Translations under genes and position numbers: made by a program | In this document: positions 8,401 through 19,901 of the stretch, piece by piece | Position numbering within the stretch: position 1 is the stretch's first letter | Layout: the number at the start of each line of letters is the position of its first letter | The notes under the pieces: model-generated | What the model was told of the DNA's origin: nothing | Seen by the model: only the letters and a program-made list of their open reading frames with translations | The model's database searches: none | From: a virus | Length of the DNA stretch: 20,074 nucleotides | Virus record (IMG/VR): IMGVR_UViG_3300007344_000352 | Span: 1 to 20,074 of that record | Direction: 5' to 3' (one strand)

Positions 8401-9472
8401 CATCGGCCGACTCGCATCTGGCCTCGGTCTTGTTGCAGTCGCCATGGAGCTTACGCAGCCTGACCCTGACACGGGGCGTCCGAAGATCACTGGGCGCGGG
8501 CCGCAGGACCCCAAGCTTCGGGAGCTTTGGCTGCAGGCGGGCAACCAGCCCTACTCAATCCAAGTGGGCGACGGGTACTACTCGTACCAGAAGCTTGACC
8601 CTTGGGCGACCCTGCTGGGTCTGGTCGCGGACTTCTACGATGTTGCCCGCTTCTCTGAGGACCAAGGCGACGAGCAGAAGACTGCCGAGTTCTTGTTCAA
8701 CCAGACCTTCGTCGCCCTGACCAACAACATCGTTGACAAGAGCTACCTGACCGGCATCCGCCAGCTACTGGACGCGACGAGTGGCGGTCAGGACACGGAC
8801 CACATCAACAGGCTGTTCCGCTCGATGGCTGCCAGCCATGTGCCGAACTTCCTTGGCGGTCCTGCCCGCGAGACCAACCAAGAACTCAAGCATGTGCGTT
8901 CGGTGATGGACGCGGTGATGGAGCGTATTCCAGGTCTTTCCGGCGGCCTTGAGCCCAAGCGCAATGTCCTCGGTGAGCCGATCACCGCGGCGGGAAGCGC
9001 CTTCAGCAAGGAGCCGGGAGGCATCACCGACTTCTTCATGCCCATCGCCTACACGCGAGTCACCGACGATGTGATCGCGGAGGAGTTGTCCGCGCTGCAG
9101 TATCGCTTCCAAAACCCGCCCAGCGAGCGCAATGGCGTTGACTGGGCAGAGGTCAAGAGTCCTTCCGGGCAGTCGGCATACGACTACTGGATGGAGAACA
9201 CCGGCAAGGTGAAGCTGGGCGGCCTGACGCTGCGCCAGCGCCTCAAGAAGACCATCAAGGACAAGCGCTACCAAGAGCTAGACCCGCGGCCGTTCGAAGG
9301 CCAAGCCTCTCCTCGAGCGGAGATGCTGCGGAGCGTCATCTCTGCGTACCGTGAACGCGCAAAGGTGGAAACGCTCAAGGCATACCCCGAACTTCGAATT
9401 GCTTCTCAGCAGTACCTCATCAACCGCTCGCTTCGGCGGCGAGGCGAAACTCCCATCCCCACCATCCGATGA
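5399..9472 (+). CDS. Internal virion protein gp16-like (ejectosome inner-membrane/DNA channel)
   Basis: A 1357-aa protein starting GTG at 5399, overlapping the previous stop (GTGA). The start is fixed by a 9-nt perfect Shine-Dalgarno match at 5385-5393. T7 gp16 (1318 aa) crosses the inner membrane, pulls in the leading DNA and carries an N-terminal lytic transglycosylase domain. Here the N-terminus goes directly into a charged tail and then Gly/Ala-rich, moderately hydrophobic segments (residues about 40-115 and 165-250) with no recognisable transglycosylase Glu motif. A Pro/Gly linker follows at about 285-345, where IGPQ/VGP motifs recur. The C-terminal half has hallmarks I associate with gp16-type proteins: MIAPFRKTPVNIINSA (about residues 937-952), a VGDGYYSYQKLDPWATLLG block, and a RNVLGEPI motif near 1187. 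It likely folds after ejection into the membrane-spanning channel. Confidence 0.8.
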   Translation: MSYREILRQDQIEQEQRRQSLAAMTPKPQEAEPEGPSLLENITDAGMGIVSGINEGVKNIYGVADAVMFDILPDYDVDFGKRTTVIGQMTEGIAEFATAFVPVAGWLGRGGKVLGGFKIAKGLSTTAEKTYKLQKASEKLSQAAVRAGKTVKSANIAQTKAAAEAMGNINKISVGRSLVAGAITDNVIYTQDDENLSSLLVQFPSLKNPVLEFLAIDEDDSELTSRIKYTIEGAGLGLLSDGILYGLKRVRAGRQIREASPDASAEQITRAVDERVGPPPDIDARPGDADFIGPQPFIGPQRPVQGPGLPAPAPGSPDFVGPISGPTKGQMLFPDIDPVEAVERRVGEGMLEATDDLIVSRGFNAGDLERQGDNIVEEVLGRETFRSEIPNPRARAEEGGFLISNEELALEEISRRGINLDNIDNGESIGALVRSAENILNRAGALSVAEEGFDEAAARAAAVTEFADLHGMDSASAAVKLTEGIEGKTLSEQAVAMRNRVVALKNVYGGLATSVKGLVDKVMVGEATNAEIVSMYRGVDALMRTTRAYSDVKSVFGQGLRSLGMPSWTNLDIPRNLLDPSQLNDIMQRGGGMKGAQKFAAQIGSMIGEKQGAAAAKAINDGLQPTWFQTFTKVHQELYLNSLLGAPKTLALAGTGIANAYWKGLQRMLGASIDATDKFLFNRNNEAQRALAKRELFEAARYNYEILVRPLHHFKESLKFVTDTALSGESKLLPGSSMRDAPGVRRSDGGATADNVARLLGDPAWLRGDAPMGKYLLDGGLLSVLKMPSRVMMSFDEAAKQFQARATAAAKLAGEYEVDRGRLLKIGREADIGSREEYIAKRMNRLIRDGQLFSKQRVYEDALARLPKDLDDTTRRLRALEMTREEFGKSSGRYGALSKFIQEDALDSTFQTPLTPGGFGARFDQMIRSVPGGMGYMIAPFRKTPVNIINSAMRHIDFMSAMKWSAASAEGTQAALNGLKKSNSKFLTQMTAGDPMQRAEAIGRLASGLGLVAVAMELTQPDPDTGRPKITGRGPQDPKLRELWLQAGNQPYSIQVGDGYYSYQKLDPWATLLGLVADFYDVARFSEDQGDEQKTAEFLFNQTFVALTNNIVDKSYLTGIRQLLDATSGGQDTDHINRLFRSMAASHVPNFLGGPARETNQELKHVRSVMDAVMERIPGLSGGLEPKRNVLGEPITAAGSAFSKEPGGITDFFMPIAYTRVTDDVIAEELSALQYRFQNPPSERNGVDWAEVKSPSGQSAYDYWMENTGKVKLGGLTLRQRLKKTIKDKRYQELDPRPFEGQASPRAEMLRSVISAYRERAKVETLKAYPELRIASQQYLINRSLRRRGETPIPTIR

Positions 9473-10956
9473 CCTCACGCACTAACTACACGGCCACCGC
9501 AGGGCAGACCTCGTTTGCGATCCCTTTCCGGTATCTGCTTGAGTCGTTCGTCAAGGTCACCGTCAACGGGACCGAGCTTTCCAATGGAGCCGGTGCTGAC
9601 GAGTTCACCGTCACGGGCAGCACTGTCAGCGATGGCGTGTTCGACGGCGGCAATGTAGTCCTCAACACTGGCGCAACCGCTGGTGACACCGTTGCGGTCT
9701 ACCGCGACAGCGGCATTGACGATGCCAACCGACTTGTTGACTTCGAGGCTGGCGCTCGCCTCTTGGAATCTGATCTTGACAAGAGCGCGCTCCAACTCCT
9801 CCACCTCCTACAAGAGGTCAAAGACAACTCAGCCACCGCCGAAGACATGACCATCACCATCGCAGATGTCGTTGGGCTCCAGACCGCCCTTGACGGGAAA
9901 GCCGCCAACACGGTGTTCGCCACGGGAGCCAATGGCATTGTGCCTGGTCCTTCCTCTTCGCAGGCTAGCGGCGACTACTTCCTCCGCGCTGACGGCACTT
10001 GGGTCGCGGTCAGCACTTCTGGAGGCGGAAGCGGAGCGTCTGTCTTCACGGGACTGGCCGATGTCCCGAACAGCTACCAAGGCCAAAACAGCAAGTTTGT
10101 TGCGGTCAACAGTGACGCGGACGGCCTTGAGTTCACCGACGCCATCACCAGCCTCGGCAGCCTGTCTGATGTCAACTTCGGCAGCAGCACCCCGAACGAA
10201 GGTGATGCGATCATCTACGACGGCGCGTCCAGTTCTTGGCTGCTGTCTCCCGCCGCAAGCATCGACCTTTCTGGGGCCAACGCTTACCAAGAAGGCAACC
10301 TCTTGGTCGGCAACGGCAACGGCAGCTACGCGCCTCTCGGCAACGGCACCAACGGCCAAGTCCTGACGGTCAACACTGCTGTCGCGGGGAACCTCGAGTG
10401 GGCCACCGCTGCCGGGGGTACTGGCGGCGACATCATGGCCGTCCAGACCATCGACACTCAGGGCGACATCACTATTGACGATGGGCAGGCCATCCCGTTC
10501 AACGGTAACCCCACCAACCGCGGCACCACCTTCACGCAAGTCGCGACGAACACCTACTTGAACCTGAGTGCGCTTGGCGGCATTGCTCACACCACGCCCA
10601 TCAACAACGCAGGCATCCGGGTCAGCACTGCGGGGATCTACAAGATCGAGTGGCGCATGACCATCCGCAACACTTTCGCGACTGACCTCGCTGCTCTTGG
10701 GCGTCTCTATGTGCGGCCCTCGAGCTTTACGACCCAAGCATCGACTCCTGTGCAGTACAGCACTGGCCTGATGTACATCCCCGGAGGCAAGAACAGCATG
10801 GTCGCGGGCACGGCTTACATTGATCTGGACGCCAACGACACGATCATGCTGACGCTTGTGGGTCAGAACGCGGGCTCGCTTGTCACTGAGGCGGCCTCGA
10901 TCAACAACTTCGAGATCGTCGGCCAGCAGGCGTTCATGCAGATCGCTAAGGTGTGA
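9469..10956 (+). CDS. Tail fibre with T7 gp17-type N-terminal domain
   Basis: A 495-aa protein, ATG overlapping the previous stop. Residues 1 to about 125 match the T7 tail-fibre N-terminal domain that docks fibres to the nozzle/adaptor: 'Y-T-A-T-A-G-Q-T-S-F-A-I-P-F-R-Y-L', a VKVTVNG strand, a GDTVAVYRDS strand, then a DFEAGARLLESDLD helix and a HLLQEVKD helix. The middle (about 150-345) is a low-complexity, Gly/Ser/Asn-rich shaft-like region with the common phage motifs DYFLRADGTWV and GLADVPNSY. Residues about 355-495 look like a C1q/TNF-type jelly roll (NAGIRVSTAGIYKIEWRM and a final FEIVGQQAFMQIAKV strand), typical of a trimeric receptor-binding or cap domain. It may be a fibre base onto which the next gene product fits; T7 gp17 itself is one protein of 553 aa. 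Confidence 0.85.
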   Translation: MTSRTNYTATAGQTSFAIPFRYLLESFVKVTVNGTELSNGAGADEFTVTGSTVSDGVFDGGNVVLNTGATAGDTVAVYRDSGIDDANRLVDFEAGARLLESDLDKSALQLLHLLQEVKDNSATAEDMTITIADVVGLQTALDGKAANTVFATGANGIVPGPSSSQASGDYFLRADGTWVAVSTSGGGSGASVFTGLADVPNSYQGQNSKFVAVNSDADGLEFTDAITSLGSLSDVNFGSSTPNEGDAIIYDGASSSWLLSPAASIDLSGANAYQEGNLLVGNGNGSYAPLGNGTNGQVLTVNTAVAGNLEWATAAGGTGGDIMAVQTIDTQGDITIDDGQAIPFNGNPTNRGTTFTQVATNTYLNLSALGGIAHTTPINNAGIRVSTAGIYKIEWRMTIRNTFATDLAALGRLYVRPSSFTTQASTPVQYSTGLMYIPGGKNSMVAGTAYIDLDANDTIMLTLVGQNAGSLVTEAASINNFEIVGQQAFMQIAKV

Positions 10957-10957
10957 T

Positions 10958-13333
10958 ATGGCATTTGCAGTCAACAAAATCGGGCTGGAGAAGCCTTACA
11001 TCTCGTTCAGTTCCCTGTCCTACTACAACTCCTTCAAGGCGTTTGGGTTGGGTCCTGACAGGGTTCTGGACAAGAACAAGTTCTGGTCCATCTACCGCAA
11101 GGACGACTCTGGCTCGTACCAAGTCCCCATCGTCCTGACCAAGGCGGCTGAAGACAATGTGGTGGTGACTTGGTCGTTCAGCGGCTCTGCTGTCGACGGC
11201 ACCCACTACACCTGTCCGATCTCCAGCATCACGATCAGGCCAGGAACGCTGATCGGCTACATCCCGATTGAGATCATCGACCGGGGTAAGTGGTTCAAAG
11301 AAAAGGACCTGATCATCACGCTCAACGCGCCGAGCAACACGATCCTTGCCAAGGATCAGGACAAGGTGCGCATCGTGTTCGTGCCGTCCACCGCTCCCCC
11401 GGAGATCACGGTCTCCACTACGCTGACGGGAGACTTCGGTAGTACCAACCTGTACGACCCCGAAACCGAGTGGACTGTCGGAACGGGAGGAGTTGGCACT
11501 TGGCAGGCTTACGGCATTACTAGTGAGAACATTAGGGCAGTAGACACCAACCCACACGGGGACCAGAAAGTTATATGGAAAGCCGTCAATGTCGAAACTG
11601 GCACCACTTACGACGGCGGATTCATGAACGATATTACCACCTACGACCCGTCAAATAACTATCGCATATCTGTTTGGTTCAACAGCAAGAGCGCACACGA
11701 TGGGAGACTATTGGTCAATAACGTCGGTGCCCCGATTTACAATATCGTTAATAGCAGTACCCTAGCTAATATAATCTTCAAAGAATTTGCCGACTTCAAT
11801 GTAGACGAGTGGTATCTCTTTGTTCTCTACATAAACCCTTACACATACACTGGATCGGGACTTGGCCTCGACGGTGTATACAATACAAGCGGAACTAAAG
11901 TATTTGATACCAACACTAATATGCGGTTTGTTGACGCGAACCATACAGATTACAAGCCCAGGTTCTCAGCTTACAACGACCCCACCGACAACAACGAAGA
12001 AGTCTGGTTCTGGGACCCTCGCTTTGATCTTGTTGACGGCACCGAGCCGTCGATCTCTGCCCTTCTAAACGGAGACCGCGGCTCCAGCCTCCCCGCAACC
12101 TTCACGGCCTCCTACGCTCCTGAAGAGGACATCACGGTGCGCTACAAGGTCAGCGGCACGGCTGCTGACGGTGTAGGTGCCAACAGCGGCGATGCCACCA
12201 TCCCTGCGGGTAGCACCACGGCTACTCTTGGGCTGCCCTACAGCGGCGATCACGCTTCGGGATCGACTGTGGTGGTCTCCGCTGACTATGAGCGGAACAC
12301 TGTGGCGTTCACTGAGCTTGATTGGGACCCTGTCCAAGGCTCCTTCTCAGTGCCTCGAGATGTTCACATCGACGAGAACATGTGGCCTCAGAGCCAAGAC
12401 CTTGTGTCGGCAGGCTTTGACCAAAGCGTCACGCGCTCTGCTGACAAGCCTTGGTGGCCGGGTTATCCGACTCAGTGGGGCATTGACGGGGCCATTGAGA
12501 GCACTGACCCCAGCCTGACTGGCTACAAGGTTGACATTGTCGAGCAGTCTGCAACCACCAAGATCGTGGACCCCGTAACGGGCAACGCCATCAAGTGGTT
12601 CGTTCCGAACGACCATATCGTCCAGTTGGTGCCGTACCTCCGCAACGCCTTCAGCCTGACATGGCCTGGTGGGCGCAGCACGGCGCACCAACTCAAAGAG
12701 TGGACTCGCGGAGCGTTCCGCATCATCCCTATGGATGCTGCTGACATCGACCACCAAGCTGAGTTCTTTGAGATCAGCCAGCGTGTCCGCACGCAGAACA
12801 CGAACCATGTGGCGAAGTTCAGGTGGAAAGATGTGGGCTCTCCGGGGTTCGGCACTGGCACGCCGGGGCTTGCTTCGAACGGTGAGACTGTCCCTGTGTA
12901 CACGCCGCCGAGCTACCCGAACATCCGCATCTGGCTGTGGGACCTTGTGAACCCGCACCCTGCGGCGGTCTCTTCGGGCTGGGCAGGCGGCTGGGGCACT
13001 TGGTACGGCGCGTTTGAGGACGAGCACGGGCTGGGTGTGTACTTCATCCACCGTCTCGACACTGCTGTCACTTGGGGCGGCAAGGTTGAGACCCCGGATG
13101 TGGACAAAGGCAACCACATCCTGTGGCCTGTCGGTCTGGACGAAGGTCTTGCGAGCGTCAAGGCCAACCAGACTGGCATGCTTTGGCACTCGATGCAGAC
13201 TCAGATGTCCAGCAGCCCCTTGTCAGGGCCGCCGACCGACTTCTGGCCTGGCCTTGGCACGGTGTGGACCCCTTGGGGCAACGCTGTGATTGATCCCGCG
13301 GCAACGACTAGCGTGACTTTCACGAAGGCATGA
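10958..13333 (+). CDS. Second fibre / receptor-binding candidate with Calx-beta-like domains and a foreign central module
   Basis: A 791-aa protein. I start at ATG 10958, preceded by AAGGTG at 10948-10953; the in-frame upstream extension lies inside the fibre gene. Residues about 50-143 look like a Calx-beta fold (FSGSAVDGTHYT, IRPGTLIGYIPIEIIDR, LIITLNAPSNTIL). Residues about 165-362 form a lectin/carbohydrate-binding-like beta module found in phage fibres, ending WDPRFDLVDGTEPSI. A second short beta domain (DITVRYKVSGTAADG) covers about 385-450. The C-terminal 340 residues are Trp-rich and unknown to me. Residues about 185-335 are encoded by AT-richer DNA with ATA and AGA codons, unlike neighbours. 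Its place directly after a gp17-like fibre suggests it is the distal host-range determinant. No enzymatic motif is seen, and depolymerase activity cannot be excluded. Confidence 0.7.
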   Translation: MAFAVNKIGLEKPYISFSSLSYYNSFKAFGLGPDRVLDKNKFWSIYRKDDSGSYQVPIVLTKAAEDNVVVTWSFSGSAVDGTHYTCPISSITIRPGTLIGYIPIEIIDRGKWFKEKDLIITLNAPSNTILAKDQDKVRIVFVPSTAPPEITVSTTLTGDFGSTNLYDPETEWTVGTGGVGTWQAYGITSENIRAVDTNPHGDQKVIWKAVNVETGTTYDGGFMNDITTYDPSNNYRISVWFNSKSAHDGRLLVNNVGAPIYNIVNSSTLANIIFKEFADFNVDEWYLFVLYINPYTYTGSGLGLDGVYNTSGTKVFDTNTNMRFVDANHTDYKPRFSAYNDPTDNNEEVWFWDPRFDLVDGTEPSISALLNGDRGSSLPATFTASYAPEEDITVRYKVSGTAADGVGANSGDATIPAGSTTATLGLPYSGDHASGSTVVVSADYERNTVAFTELDWDPVQGSFSVPRDVHIDENMWPQSQDLVSAGFDQSVTRSADKPWWPGYPTQWGIDGAIESTDPSLTGYKVDIVEQSATTKIVDPVTGNAIKWFVPNDHIVQLVPYLRNAFSLTWPGGRSTAHQLKEWTRGAFRIIPMDAADIDHQAEFFEISQRVRTQNTNHVAKFRWKDVGSPGFGTGTPGLASNGETVPVYTPPSYPNIRIWLWDLVNPHPAAVSSGWAGGWGTWYGAFEDEHGLGVYFIHRLDTAVTWGGKVETPDVDKGNHILWPVGLDEGLASVKANQTGMLWHSMQTQMSSSPLSGPPTDFWPGLGTVWTPWGNAVIDPAATTSVTFTKA
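11505..11965 (+). other. AT-rich horizontally acquired segment inside the fibre gene
   Basis: Within the coding frame of the 791-aa fibre protein, the composition changes abruptly. Codons such as ATA (Ile), AGA (Arg), TTA/CTA-type Leu and GTA/GTT-type Val appear in clusters here and are rare elsewhere in the window. The only ACGT tetranucleotide I found in the window (11721-11724) falls in this block. The block matches one predicted beta module (residues about 185-335). Both edges blend into GC-rich sequence encoding the rest of the same domain. I read it as recombinational replacement of a receptor-contact module. Edges are approximate, by eye. Confidence 0.65.
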
Positions 13334-13337
13334 TCCA

Positions 13338-13907
13338 GTGGAGCAATACCTTGCCATCGCATCCGGCGTAGCGGGCGGTCTGGCAGTCAGCTTCAAGCTG
13401 CTCAGGTGGGCGTACAAGACAGCCCAAGATGTGCAGCAGAAGCTTGACACCATTGCGGAGCTTTCTCAGGAGCTTGTGCCTAACGGCGGAAGCTCTCTGA
13501 GAGACTCCATGAATCGTGTCGAGCAGAGCGTGGTCTCGCTGACCTCGAAGCTGCGCATGATCGTCCAGTTGAACGAGTGGGACGCCTTCGAGACGGATGC
13601 TCAGGGCAACTGGACATGCTGCACTGGCACCTTTGACCGCGCCACGGGGCTCGAGAAAGATCAGATCCTTGGCTACGGCTGGATGAACGCCGTGCATCCT
13701 GATGACCGCAGCAGGGTTCTTGAGGAGTACAAGCTTGCCATGCGCCAGGAGCGCGACTGGATCTGCAAGCTTGGGATCAAGAACATCCAGACGGGCCAGA
13801 CGGGCGAGTACCAGATCAAGGCCCAGTGCCTTCGCCTGAACGGCCAAATGTTCGGGTACTTGGGCATCATCGAGAGAGACTACTCCGAGGAGGAGACACT
13901 TGACTGA
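13338..13907 (+). CDS. Membrane-anchored PAS-domain protein in the holin position
   Basis: A 189-aa protein starting GTG at 13338; GAAGG lies about 9 nt upstream. Residues about 4-26 (YLAIASGVAGGLAVSFKLL) form one membrane segment followed by Arg/Lys. A linker with coiled-coil character contains the recurrent phage motif ELVPNGGSSLRD (about 44-56). Residues about 78-182 are a PAS fold: the WDAFETDAQGNW strand, the NAVHPDDRSRVLEEY motif (117-131) typical of PAS_3-type domains, and closing strands QIKAQCLRLNGQMFGYLGII. PAS domains bind small ligands or mediate dimerisation and signalling. There is no kinase, cyclase or DNA-binding output. T7 places its holin (gp17.5) between fibre and small terminase, so this protein may replace or regulate the holin; that is inference from position only. 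It overlaps the small terminase gene by 8 nt. Confidence 0.75.
   Translation: MEQYLAIASGVAGGLAVSFKLLRWAYKTAQDVQQKLDTIAELSQELVPNGGSSLRDSMNRVEQSVVSLTSKLRMIVQLNEWDAFETDAQGNWTCCTGTFDRATGLEKDQILGYGWMNAVHPDDRSRVLEEYKLAMRQERDWICKLGIKNIQTGQTGEYQIKAQCLRLNGQMFGYLGIIERDYSEEETLD
13887..13896 (+). promoter_or_regulatory. Strong ribosome binding site deciding a TTG start
   Basis: GAGGAGGAGA lies 3 nt before TTG at 13900, with its core GGAGG 7 nt away. It sits inside the last codons of the PAS gene and supports initiation of the small terminase gene at TTG, where no ATG or GTG is suitably placed. Confidence 0.7.
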
Positions 13908-14127
13908 TCAGTTCGCAACGCTGCACGGGGTCTTGGTCCAAGAGCTTCTGGACCGCATCCGGTCAGGCGAAGCTACGCCGTCCGACCTGAATGTGGCGCG
14001 CCAGCTTCTGAAGGACAACAACATCGTGGCTGCGCCAAACAACAAGCCCGTGCTGAAGCTGGCTGACCGCATCCCGCAGTTCGGTGACCCTGACCAAGTG
14101 CCCGCTAAGATGCCGAAGCAGGCATGA
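13900..14127 (+). CDS. terS: Small terminase subunit (T7 gp18-like)
   Basis: A 75-aa protein beginning at TTG 13900 behind a strong ribosome binding site. In T7-like phages the small terminase (gp18, 89 aa) forms a ring that recognises concatemer DNA and activates the large subunit. The helical core LVQELLDRIRSGEATPSDLNVARQLLKDNNI matches the pattern I know for podoviral small terminases: a Leu-rich helix, a Gly-Glu-Ala turn, then 'LNVARQFLKDN'. The C-terminal third is Pro-rich and ends in KMPKQA. It lies immediately upstream of the large terminase, with a 4-nt ATGA overlap. The protein is short for the family, but no key element is obviously lost. Confidence 0.85.
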   Translation: MTDQFATLHGVLVQELLDRIRSGEATPSDLNVARQLLKDNNIVAAPNNKPVLKLADRIPQFGDPDQVPAKMPKQA

Positions 14128-15842
14128 GTTACGACTACCAAGACGAAGCTCTCAGGGACTTCAGGGCCTTCCTCTACCTTGTCTGGGATGAGTTGGGCCT
14201 GCCTGACCCGACGCCTGTCCAGTACGACATTGCGCAGTTCCTGCAGCACGGTCCTCGGCGGCGCATGGTCCAGGCGTTCCGCGGTGTGGGCAAGTCTTGG
14301 ATCACCTCTGCCTATGTGCTCTGGCGGCTGTACTGGAACCCTGCCGAGAACATCCTAGTGGTGTCGGCAAGTAAGGAGCGTGCTGACGCATTCTCGATCT
14401 TCACCCAGCGCCTCATCAGGGACATCGAGTGGCTGAACCCGCTGATGCCTCGAGAAGAGGATGGGCAGCGCCGCTCGATGGTGGCATTCGATGTCGGCCC
14501 TGCTGGCGCATCTCACGCGCCTTCCGTCAAGTCCGTGGGGATCACGGGCCAGATGACGGGCTCGCGTGCTGACTGCCTCATTGCCGACGATGTCGAGTCG
14601 CTCTCCAACTCTGACACCCAACTGAAGCGGGACAAGCTTGGTGAGGTGGTCAAGGAGTTCGACGCCATCCTGAAGCCCAACGGCAGCGTGGTGTACCTAG
14701 GCACGCCTCAGACCGAGGAGTCCATCTACAAGTACCTGCCCGAGCGTGGGTACAGCATCAGGGTCTGGCCTGCCCGCTACCCGCGCCCCGACAAGGTTGC
14801 GAGCTATGGCGGGGCCAACCGGGAGCTTGCCCCGATGATCATGGAATCCCTCATGACCGATGAGGGCTACCAGAGCCATATGGAGTGGCAGCCTACTGAC
14901 CCTGGCCGCTTCAATGAGATGGAACTCATCGAGCGCGAGGCCAGCTATGGGCGTGCTGGCTTTGCCCTGCAGTTCCAGCTTGACACCTCGCTGTCGGACA
15001 CTGAGCGCTACCCGCTCAAGGCTCGCGACCTGATTGTCATGCCCCTAGACCCCGAGACAGCCCCTGAGCGCGTGGTCTGGTCTGGGGACATCAAGCAGCG
15101 CATCAAGGAGCTTGAGTGCGTGGGCATGGCTGGAGACGGCTTCCAGCGCCCCTACTCGACCGATGGGTCTCCTGGAGAGTACCGCTACAGCATCATGGCT
15201 GTGGACCCTGCTGGACGGGGCAAGGACGAGACCGCTGTCTGCGTGATCAAAGAGCGCCTAGGTAAGCTCTATGTAACGGCGTGGGAAGCGTTCCCTGGAG
15301 GCTACGACACCCTGACCCTCCAGAAGATATCCACAATCGCCAAGGAGCACGGCGTCCACAAGATCATCGTGGAATCCAACTTCGGTGATGGCATGTTCAA
15401 CAGCCTGCTGGAGCCGGTCCTGAGCAGGATCTACCCAGTCGAGCTTGAGGAGGTCAGGCACTCCAAGCAGAAGGAGCGCCGGATTGCTGATGTCCTCGAG
15501 CCTGTCCTCGGAGCCCATGCCCTCATCCTGGATGAGCAGGTCGCCCGCAAGGACTACGAGACCCGTGGCGACCTCCCCTTCGAAGAACGCCTCAGGCGCA
15601 TGGGCATCTACCAGATGACCCGCCTCACCCGCCAGAAAGGGGCCTTGGTCCATGACGACAAGCTCGATGCCCTGAGCATGGCCGTCGCTGCCCACCAAGA
15701 CGCCCTCAAGATCGACGAAACCAAGGCCATCGAGCGCCTCAGAGACGCTGAGTGGGACGATGCCATGGAGTCTTTGTTCAGAGAGCCTCTCAGCGGCCCT
15801 CAGAGGCGCGGGAAGACTTGGATGGACTCCATGCTTGGCTAG
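14124..15842 (+). CDS. terL: Large terminase subunit (T7 gp19-like DNA packaging ATPase/nuclease)
   Basis: A 572-aa protein, ATG overlapping the small terminase stop. It powers DNA translocation into the prohead and cuts concatemers. The N-terminal ATPase has a deviant Walker A (FRGVGKS, residues 52-58), a Walker B with catalytic acid (CLIADDVES, about 151-159), and the coupling motif VVYLGTPQTEESIY near residue 190. The C-terminal RNase H-like nuclease shows its three acidic positions: D361 in MAVDPAGRGKDETA, E417 in IIVESNFGDGMF, and D511/D512/D515 in HDDKLDALSMA. T7 gp19 is 586 aa, so the protein is full length. It ends the late operon; a 9-bp stem-loop follows within 10 nt. T7-type terminases usually generate short direct terminal repeats, which matters for interpreting the DNA after 16930. 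Confidence 0.95.
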   Translation: MSYDYQDEALRDFRAFLYLVWDELGLPDPTPVQYDIAQFLQHGPRRRMVQAFRGVGKSWITSAYVLWRLYWNPAENILVVSASKERADAFSIFTQRLIRDIEWLNPLMPREEDGQRRSMVAFDVGPAGASHAPSVKSVGITGQMTGSRADCLIADDVESLSNSDTQLKRDKLGEVVKEFDAILKPNGSVVYLGTPQTEESIYKYLPERGYSIRVWPARYPRPDKVASYGGANRELAPMIMESLMTDEGYQSHMEWQPTDPGRFNEMELIEREASYGRAGFALQFQLDTSLSDTERYPLKARDLIVMPLDPETAPERVVWSGDIKQRIKELECVGMAGDGFQRPYSTDGSPGEYRYSIMAVDPAGRGKDETAVCVIKERLGKLYVTAWEAFPGGYDTLTLQKISTIAKEHGVHKIIVESNFGDGMFNSLLEPVLSRIYPVELEEVRHSKQKERRIADVLEPVLGAHALILDEQVARKDYETRGDLPFEERLRRMGIYQMTRLTRQKGALVHDDKLDALSMAVAAHQDALKIDETKAIERLRDAEWDDAMESLFREPLSGPQRRGKTWMDSMLG

Positions 15843-16252: not shown

Positions 16253-16930
16253 ATGAAGAAAACCCTTCTAGCCGTTGTTGTGGGGGCCTCCCTGCTCGCT
16301 GGTTGTGAGACCCTGCAAGACCTCTCACAAGCCTCTCTGACCCCCCAGCAGGTTGAGCAGCTTGACGAGTACACCGCTCGCATTGCGCAGCAGGAGAAGA
16401 TCATCGAGGGCCTGGAAGCTCAGGTCATCGAAGTCAGCAAGGCCACCGCCAAAGACCTCAAGAACGGGGAGGTGGCTGATCTGGCTAACCGACTCAGCCT
16501 GCTCATGGACATCCAAGAGGCTCACGAAGCCGCTGTGGGTGAGTATCAGCAGGCGATTGAGGAGGAGAGGGCGATCATCACCTCTGGGACCAAGAAAGTG
16601 ACCGATGGGTTCTTGGCTGTGGTGGCTCCGTTCATCCCAGCACCCGTCCAGCCCCTCCTGCCCTTCGCCTCGAGCCTGTTGGTGCTTGCTATGTCCACCA
16701 GAGCCCGGAAGCATGCCGGGAAAGCTCTGGCTGCTACGGCCAAAGGAGCCCTCGGAGACGCTCTCAGCAGCACTCTGAAGGCTGTTGGGGCCAAGCACAC
16801 CTCTGACACCCCTGATGACCTCCTGAAAGACGCTCTGATGGCCGCTCAGGCCGCCTATGCGAAGGGGGACATCACCATTGAGAAGCTCGAAGCCGTCAAA
16901 GCAGCGGCTTCTGTGGCTGCTCAAGCGTGA
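16253..16930 (+). CDS. Lipoprotein with coiled coil and internal membrane segment; candidate unimolecular spanin
   Basis: A 225-aa protein. The N-terminus is a lipoprotein signal: MKKTLL, a hydrophobic core, then the lipobox L-A-G-C with Cys18. Residues about 31-112 are a Glu/Gln-rich helix likely to form a coiled coil. Residues about 120-148 (FLAVVAPFIPAP through FASSLLVLAMS) are hydrophobic and followed by RARKH, which under the positive-inside rule puts the C-terminus in the cytoplasm. A lipidated outer-membrane end joined by a coiled coil to an inner-membrane segment is the plan of unimolecular spanins such as phage T1 gp11, which fuse the two membranes in lysis. Unlike T1 gp11, about 75 Ala/Lys-rich residues follow the membrane segment. 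No separate Rz/Rz1 pair is visible in the window. Codon use matches the late operon. No ribosome binding site is apparent. Confidence 0.6.
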   Translation: MKKTLLAVVVGASLLAGCETLQDLSQASLTPQQVEQLDEYTARIAQQEKIIEGLEAQVIEVSKATAKDLKNGEVADLANRLSLLMDIQEAHEAAVGEYQQAIEEERAIITSGTKKVTDGFLAVVAPFIPAPVQPLLPFASSLLVLAMSTRARKHAGKALAATAKGALGDALSSTLKAVGAKHTSDTPDDLLKDALMAAQAAYAKGDITIEKLEAVKAAASVAAQA

Positions 16931-17813: not shown

Positions 17814-17815
17814 TT

Positions 17816-17851
17816 CCAAACTACACTCCAAACTACACTCCAAACCATGAA
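17816..17851 (+). repeat. Tandem 12-nt leader repeats before and into the second early gene
   Basis: Two exact units of CCAAACTACACT (17816-17827, 17828-17839), then CCAAACCATGAA (17840-17851), which contains the start codon ATG at 17847. No spacer bases between units. The array begins 2 nt after the upstream stop codon. Confidence 0.85.
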
Positions 17852-18218
17852 CCCCACTCTCACGATGAACCTCTCTCTCACAATTCGCATGGCCGGTTAT
17901 CGTTTCGGAACCGTTGGAACCGTGGCCGAAACCGGCCGGGATGCAATGAGCGAAACCCTTTGCATGGCCGGGGACCTTCATGATGCGGCCGTGTCCCGGA
18001 TGCAAGGAACCCCAGACTCGCAAGCGCGCGCTGGGGATGCCGCGGAAGCGCTTTTCATTCTGCAGGGAAATGCGGATGCGATTACGGCCGCGCTTAGTCT
18101 CGGATGCCGCGGGAACGGGGAAGCCTGGTTCCGACTTGAGCGGCAGGGCACGCTTTCCGGCGTTGGTATCACGATGGAATTCCACGCTACGCTTGGGGAA
18201 ATCGAGACCAAAGGCTGA
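17847..18218 (+). CDS. Hypothetical early protein, 123 aa
   Basis: Start at ATG 17847, embedded in the third 12-nt repeat unit. Later in-frame ATGs at 17865 and 17889 are possible, since the first 14 residues are Thr/Leu-rich and encoded by leader-like DNA. No Shine-Dalgarno precedes any of them. The protein mixes beta (MAGYRFGTVGTVAET; AWFRLERQGTLSGVGITMEFHATLGEIET) and helix (DAAEALFILQGNADAITAALSLG), with no motif I recognise. The C-terminal strands look like a small beta sheet. It ends TGA at 18216-18218, 4 nt before the next gene. Codon choice matches the other early genes. No function is proposed; early-region neighbours suggest host interaction. Confidence 0.65.
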   Translation: MNPTLTMNLSLTIRMAGYRFGTVGTVAETGRDAMSETLCMAGDLHDAAVSRMQGTPDSQARAGDAAEALFILQGNADAITAALSLGCRGNGEAWFRLERQGTLSGVGITMEFHATLGEIETKG

Positions 18219-19160: not shown

Positions 19161-19162
19161 AA

Positions 19163-19210
19163 CCAAACTACACTCCAAACCAAAAACCAAACTACACTCC
19201 AAACCATGAA
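19163..19210 (+). repeat. Four-unit 12-nt leader repeat array before the last early gene
   Basis: Exact 12-nt periodicity: CCAAACTACACT (19163), CCAAACCAAAAA (19175), CCAAACTACACT (19187), CCAAACCATGAA (19199, containing ATG at 19206). A further CAAACCATGAACC lies at 19224-19236 with a second in-frame ATG at 19230. The array starts 2 nt after the upstream stop. Confidence 0.85.
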
Positions 19211-19901
19211 CCCTCTCTCATTTCAAACCATGAACCGCGCCGCGCTTTCCTTTGAAATCGAGCGCGCTCTCGAAATCGTTTCGCGGGATGCGCGAGATTC
19301 AAACGATATCGGTTCTGATTTCCATTTCACGGCCGCCGAAATCGCGGCATGGACCGACTACGATTCTGGCGCGCCGCTTGCCATGCTGTCGCGGACCGCG
19401 CAATGGAAGCGCGGGGACCATGCATGGATTTCCCCAGAGCGCTGGGCCGCGCATGCCAAGCGCGAAATCGAAAGCGCGGAATCCCGCGCGGCTAATCGGG
19501 AGGCTTGGGATTGGCTGGAAATGGACTCGAACTCCCAGACCTACGATGAGACCTGGAAGCGGGATCGGTTCTCGGAAATCGACCGCGAATGGCTCGCGCG
19601 CCACGCATCGGTTCCGCTTCCGGAGCGCGCGCGCGATTTCCGGGAGGCGCATCCGCTCGCATGGCGGAACCTAGCCGCGCGCGAGCTACGGGATGCGCTA
19701 CGCTTCCACGGTTTCGGTTGCCATTCTAACGGTAGCCTATGGTCCGCTTGGGCTTGGGGCGGCCGTGGGAACACGGTCCGCGCGCGCATGCATCGGCAGG
19801 CTGATACGCTGGCTCTCACGCTTTGCACGCTCTACGGTATTCGTTCCGCGGCCGCAAAATACGCTGCGCGCATGCATGCGGCGCTCTACGGGCAAGGCTA
19901 A
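19206..19901 (+). CDS. Hypothetical early protein, 231 aa, Trp/Arg-rich
   Basis: ATG at 19206 lies in the last 12-nt unit; an in-frame ATG at 19230 sits in an identical AAACCATGAACC context, so either may be used. No Shine-Dalgarno. The protein is mainly helical and strikingly rich in Trp, Arg and Ala: FTAAEIAAWTDYDSG (about 41-55), AWISPERWAAHAKREIESAES (73-93), a W-D-W-L-E segment near 101, ARDFREAHPLAWRNLAARELRDALRFHGFG (about 140-169), and a C-terminal helix ending in ARMHAALYGQG. No domain is recognised. It is the last gene before a strong intrinsic terminator. Codon use matches the other early genes (GCG, GAA, GAT). No function is proposed. Confidence 0.65.
   Translation: MNPLSFQTMNRAALSFEIERALEIVSRDARDSNDIGSDFHFTAAEIAAWTDYDSGAPLAMLSRTAQWKRGDHAWISPERWAAHAKREIESAESRAANREAWDWLEMDSNSQTYDETWKRDRFSEIDREWLARHASVPLPERARDFREAHPLAWRNLAARELRDALRFHGFGCHSNGSLWSAWAWGGRGNTVRARMHRQADTLALTLCTLYGIRSAAAKYAARMHAALYGQG

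What the first reader, a model, noticed from the sequence alone, without database searches (positions are those of the whole stretch)
13338..13907. PAS sensor domain on a membrane anchor in the holin slot
T7-like phages usually put the holin between fibre and small terminase. Here that place holds one transmembrane helix, a coiled linker and a complete PAS fold with the VHPDDR motif. No enzymatic output domain follows. A ligand- or redox-sensing membrane protein could time lysis or sense the energy state, which would be an unusual control of lysis.
Basis: partly seen in the sequence, partly recalled or inferred. Interest (0 to 1): 0.6.

Follow-up and report, generated by a model that had tools for sequence, protein, structure and literature searches.

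The report
PAS-fused phage lysis-type membrane protein
A T7-like phage carries, where its relatives keep the gene that breaks the cell membrane, a small membrane protein fused to a sensor-type (PAS) domain; the same fusion recurs in several unrelated phages, some of them beside cell-wall-cutting enzymes, so phages may have a built-in sensor that adjusts when the host cell bursts, though no function has been tested.

Summary
13338-13907 encodes 189 aa: one weak N-terminal TM helix, a coiled linker and a PAS domain (Pfam PAS_3 4.9e-6; AF2 pLDDT 86-95; Z 15.6 to a solved PAS), with no output domain. It lies directly 5' of TerS, where two close cultured relatives carry GTA_holin_3TM holins. The TM-coil half belongs to a widespread phage family with the motif PNGGSSLRDxxNRIE (phrog_9869). 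Most members end 10-29 residues after the motif; several sit in lysis cassettes (mu1/6, TurkishDelight, Sonali). The family resembles, by profile-profile comparison only, DUF2746/LysF1b, a one-TM N-out/C-in holin of mycobacteriophages with published deletion phenotypes; the Pfam DUF2746 model itself does not match. PAS-bearing forms recur in about 8-9 phage lineages, three with lysis-type neighbours; one also carries a receiver domain. In this collection every member with at least 100 residues after the motif carries PAS. Best reading: a late inner-membrane lysis protein working like LysF1b, with a cytoplasmic PAS cap that assembles or gates it. Lysis role likely; sensing inferred; ligand unknown. 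The genome is incomplete, so a second holin cannot be excluded.

The parts
13338..13907 (+). TM-coil-PAS protein, 189 aa, GTG start; AAGG a few nt upstream as possible RBS
13347..13403 (+). single N-terminal TM helix (residues 4-22; G10-xxx-G14), predicted N-out/C-in
   Evidence: KD 1.58; K/R after TM 3, before 0; AF2 helix 2-45, low pLDDT
13407..13472 (+). first coil helix (residues 24-45)
   Evidence: low pLDDT
13476..13505 (+). family motif VPNGGSSLRD (residues 47-56), helix break and N-cap
13494..13571 (+). second coil / signalling-type helix (residues 53-78) with heptads
   Evidence: sequence
13575..13886 (+). PAS domain (residues 80-183)
13310..13411 (.). 102 nt identical between the two related lineages, across the tail-gene end and the TM codons; cause unknown
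9469..10956 (+). tail fibre with T7 fibre N-terminus
   Evidence: Phage_T7_tail 1.7e-9
10958..13333 (+). second large tail-region protein (791 aa) directly upstream; role by position only
13900..14127 (+). terminase small subunit
   Evidence: (DNA_Packaging_2 1.1e-17)
14124..15842 (+). terminase large subunit, T7 type

Best explanation
A late-expressed inner-membrane lysis protein. The short N-terminus is outside, one TM helix crosses the membrane, and the coil and PAS lie in the cytoplasm. The TM-coil module works like LysF1b of mycobacteriophages (a one-TM N-out/C-in holin): copies accumulate and associate through the TM (G-xxx-G) and the coiled helix, then permeabilise or depolarise the membrane so that the phage's cell-wall enzyme can act. 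The PAS domain sits at the end of the second coil helix, as PAS domains do on signalling helices, and sets or gates assembly by dimerising and possibly by binding a small molecule or cofactor. Shown here: architecture, PAS fold, slot, recurrence of the fusion, lysis-cassette context of part of the family, profile similarity to DUF2746/LysF1b. Inferred: membrane permeabilisation, topology, and that PAS modulates timing.
For: PAS fold and TM-coil. Slot: GTA_holin_3TM directly 5' of TerS in CRP-125 and CRP-227, annotated holin in LUZ100. Family: 123 distinct motif contexts with a TM upstream, 98 ending 10-29 aa after the motif. Lysis cassettes in cultured phages: mu1/6 endolysin-holin-gp52, TurkishDelight endolysin-holin-gp37, Sonali gp22-endolysin-holin, P1312 gp40-amidase, LiSara gp69 annotated holin. 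Endolysin PHROGs lead the tally of neighbours within 1.5 kb and are absent from the top 25 families of genes 3-5.5 kb away. PAS forms: L112 near an endolysin-type amidase (9.6e-28), L110 near an endolysin (4.6e-21); L027 near Amidase_2. Profile match to DUF2746: Prob 82.7, E 9.5e-6, 0 of 60 shuffles as high in each of two shuffle designs; PAS-bearing against non-PAS N-termini 99.3%, 1e-20. Published: lysF1b deletion gives lysis defects, and KCN triggers lysis in phages with only LysF1b (PMC13056207).
Against: The TM is weakly hydrophobic. The Pfam DUF2746 model matches none of the family records tested. No endolysin was seen in the window or in L153, and the genome is incomplete. Endolysin neighbours were confirmed in only 5 of 30 family clusters (20 neighbour proteins tested individually), and two PAS lineages (L120, L178) have no clear lysis neighbour. 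LysF1b was studied in a Gram-positive host. No experiment on a PNGGSSLRD family member was found in the held papers.
Confidence: 0.55

Rival explanations
1. Same lysis protein, but the PAS is only a dimerisation and stability module; it senses nothing.
For: PAS domains commonly dimerise (general knowledge); no cofactor motif is evident; short family members manage without PAS.
Against: In 13 of 13 long contexts the added domain is PAS and never another dimeriser; one adds a receiver domain. The search began from a PAS-bearing query, so this count may be biased.
Confidence: 0.2
2. Not a lysis protein: a membrane-anchored signalling decoy or host-takeover factor that binds host PAS or two-component proteins, or a superinfection-exclusion protein.
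For: PAS and PAS-receiver are host-type signalling modules; no lysis neighbour read in L120 and L178.
Against: Holin slot in the window; lysis neighbours for several PAS and non-PAS members.
Confidence: 0.15
3. An accessory or antiholin-type partner of a separate canonical holin encoded in the unsequenced part of the genome.
For: In mu1/6, TurkishDelight and mycobacteriophage Tweety a second TM gene annotated holin sits beside it; roughly half of a T7-like genome is missing here.
Against: In the T7-like slot it stands alone, and no other plausible late holin is seen in the window. L153 8233-8442 is a small TM ORF of unknown status.
Confidence: 0.1

Closest known systems
LysF1b of mycobacteriophages Girr and NormanBulbieJr (DUF2746, PF10874; PMC13056207)
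   Same: one N-terminal TM, N-out/C-in, basic residues after the TM, helical cytoplasmic part, lysis-cassette setting of the family; aligned motif N-T-H-x-T-N-[LM]-R-D against N-G-G-S-S-L-R-D (profile Prob 82.7)
   Different: no PAS in LysF1b; the DUF2746 model does not match this protein; Gram-positive host
phrog_9869 (unknown function; Streptomyces phage mu1/6 gp52 matches it at 2e-32)
   Same: TM, coil and PNGGSSLRD motif
   Different: about 98 aa and ends after the motif; no PAS
T7 gp17.5 holin
   Same: late gene between tail fibre and TerS; single-TM membrane protein (own knowledge)
   Different: 67 aa in T7 (own knowledge), no PAS; no holin PHROG matches this protein
PAS domains of Marinobacter diguanylate cyclase Maqu_2914 (3h9w) and E. 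coli Aer (8dik)
   Same: PAS fold (Z 15.6 and 12.6)
   Different: there PAS drives a cyclase or chemotaxis output; here no output domain follows
BFVD A0A6J5QVN9 and A0A6J5NY05, 'PAS domain [uncultured Caudovirales phage]'
   Same: 195 and 205 aa; match over most of the model, 26% and 19% identity
   Different: only a database annotation; not linked to lysis

Membership tests
PAS domain | match to Pfam PAS profiles above the curated cut-off | tested here: met
   PAS_3 27.2 bits (cut-off 25.6), PAS 22.8 (22.6)
PAS domain | PAS fold | tested here: met
   confident model; Z 15.6, rmsd 1.6, 105 residues to 3h9w
PAS domain | bound ligand or cofactor (where present) | not testable with these tools
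   needs purified protein
LOV photoreceptor | photoactive cysteine of the NCRFLQ motif | tested here: not met
   by eye, TGLEKDQILGYGW: W115 where LOV has Cys; motif recalled from general knowledge
LysF1b / DUF2746 | match to PF10874 | tested here: not met
   no match at E<=1 in the window or 10 other records; Tweety positive control 2.7e-13
LysF1b / DUF2746 | single N-terminal TM, N-out/C-in, basic residues after the TM | tested here: met
   113 of 118 family members have more K/R after the TM than before; hydropathy and charge rule only
LysF1b / DUF2746 | remote profile similarity | tested here: met
   Prob 82.7, E 9.5e-6; 0/60 shuffles; PAS-bearing rows alone Prob 60.3
LysF1b / DUF2746 | lysis defect on deletion, triggering by energy poisons | not testable with these tools
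   experiment needed
phrog_9869 | profile match in the coil-motif region | tested here: met
   7.3e-6, residues 38-72
phrog_9869 | full-length architecture (about 98 aa) | tested here: not met
   only profile positions 61-95 match; PAS added
T7-type holin (gp17.5) | gene slot between fibre and TerS | tested here: met
T7-type holin (gp17.5) | sequence match to a holin family | tested here: not met
   none at E<=1

The most novel reading that the evidence does not exclude
Some phages carry a sensor-gated holin: a LysF1b-like membrane protein whose cytoplasmic PAS (in one phage PAS plus a receiver domain) makes lysis timing respond to host redox, metabolite, energy or phosphorelay state.
Probability: 0.3. 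Interest if true: 0.85.

Novelty: new variant of a known kind. Interest (0 to 1): 0.62.

Why it matters
Holin timing is usually described as an internal clock triggered by accumulation. A signalling domain fused to a lysis-type membrane protein, recurring in several phage lineages and once with a receiver domain, would give a direct route from host physiology to lysis time and a testable case of environment-sensing lysis beyond lysis inhibition. It also gives a lead on the function of phrog_9869, now 'unknown function'.

Tried and rejected
tblastn of the protein in GenBank phages: nothing at E<1e-3 and only weak coil hits up to E 10. Plasmids: weak hits only, mostly ordinary PAS sensor proteins. 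Genome-contig scan: 9 loci, all actinobacterial, matching only the TM-coil half. RNA-structure explanation of the 102-nt identical block rejected (z +1.2, 179 of 200 shuffles fold at least as well); a repeated promoter element is not supported. LOV photochemistry set aside (no Cys at the site). Searches of the held papers for a phage PAS-lysis link found none; subscription papers are not held. PAS pocket geometry could not be examined (model coordinates not available in the box).

Full report
Check. ORF 13338-13907 encodes TM (residues 4-22), coil, motif VPNGGSSLRD and PAS (80-183). Six IMG/VR contigs carry it: three at 98-99% and three at 72-73% identity. Codons 81-183 have dN/dS 0.23, similar to TerS 0.26 and TerL 0.19. 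The AF2 model shows a long helix 2-45 and a helix 53-78 (low pLDDT) and a confident PAS. Foldseek and VIA-align find PAS domains.

Slot. Tail genes lie upstream, TerS and TerL downstream. The nearest cultured relatives by TerL are Roseobacter, Rhizobium and Pseudomonas T7-like phages at about 52-57% identity. Directly 5' of TerS, CRP-125 gp44 and CRP-227 gp45 match GTA_holin_3TM (6.6e-17, 8.1e-13), LUZ100 has an annotated holin, RHEph01 and CRP-171 have TM proteins.

Family. Scans with the coil motif found a large set of phage proteins with TM, coil and the motif. Over all loci held, 123 distinct motif contexts have a TM upstream; 98 end 10-29 aa after the motif; the 13 with at least 100 aa after it all carry PAS, in about 8-9 lineages (window group, L110, L169, L027/L111/L112 with L113 and L114, L028, L116, L120, L178). 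The starting query bears PAS, so the share of PAS among long forms may be inflated. Pfam supports PAS above a cut-off in the window, L110, L027, L111, L113, L169 and L116, and below cut-off in L028, L120 and L178. L169 adds a response-regulator receiver (6.1e-14); it is known from a single contig.

Lysis context. Cultured members: mu1/6 gp52 after endolysin and holin, P1312 gp40 before an amidase, Sonali gp22 before endolysin and holin, TurkishDelight gp37 after endolysin and holin, LiSara gp69 annotated holin. PAS members: L027/L112 just after an amidase gene and one small gene (Amidase_2 1e-13; endolysin PHROG 9.6e-28), L110 with an endolysin upstream (4.6e-21) and a weak Rz-like gene (0.012), L169 after a 2-TM gene and a phrog_3000 (unknown function) gene with overlapping starts. 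Neighbour tallies: endolysins near, not far. Individually tested neighbours gave endolysin matches in five of 30 clusters.

Known relative. LysF1b (DUF2746) is a single-TM N-out/C-in protein; its deletion causes severe lysis defects, and phages with only LysF1b trigger prematurely on energy poisons (PMC13056207). Tweety gp33, Che8 gp35 and eight others were aligned; the PNGGSSLRD family against them gives Prob 82.7, E 9.5e-6 for a single comparison, with 0 of 60 shuffles reaching the score in either of two designs. PF10874 itself matches none of the family records tested. I therefore claim 'works like', not membership.

Mechanism. Topology follows K/R after the TM (113 of 118). Step 1, late expression with tail and terminase genes: inferred from position. 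Step 2, accumulation and association through the TM and heptad coil: inferred. Step 3, membrane lesion: by analogy with LysF1b. Step 4, PAS gating: inferred from architecture; the signal is unknown.

Limits. The window is a 20-kb virus fragment. The related contig L153 (17.5 kb) runs from the tail genes into the RNA polymerase gene and shows no endolysin or canonical holin by reading. A large part of the genome is unseen.

Noticed in passing
window 13310-13411: 102 nt identical to the 73%-identity lineage (L006/L153) while the surrounding 2.6 kb is 76% identical; 0 of 24 codons differ there against 24 of 44 shared residues just after. Recombination junction or unknown constraint.
   Followed up: partly
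window 16253-16930; L153 6530-7207: 225-aa protein with a lipoprotein-type N-terminus (LAGC), a coil and a mid-protein TM, downstream of TerL; could be a single-protein spanin-like gene. No family match.
   Followed up: partly
L169 3941-4960: TM-coil-PAS-receiver fusion; the receiver's usual active-site residues appear present by reading; behind a 2-TM gene and a gene of unknown function.
   Followed up: partly
L153 9130-9969, 10637-12664, 13865-16276: By reading only: tyrosine recombinase, PP-loop and QueE/QueC-like genes, T7-type RNA polymerase; a temperate-looking T7-like phage.
   Followed up: no
L153 8233-8442: Small ORF with a strongly hydrophobic C-terminus overlapping the gene before it; possible small membrane protein, no counterpart seen in the window.
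   Followed up: no
window 17815-17866 and 19162-19213: 12-nt tandem repeats TCCAAACTACAC just before ORF starts.
   Followed up: no
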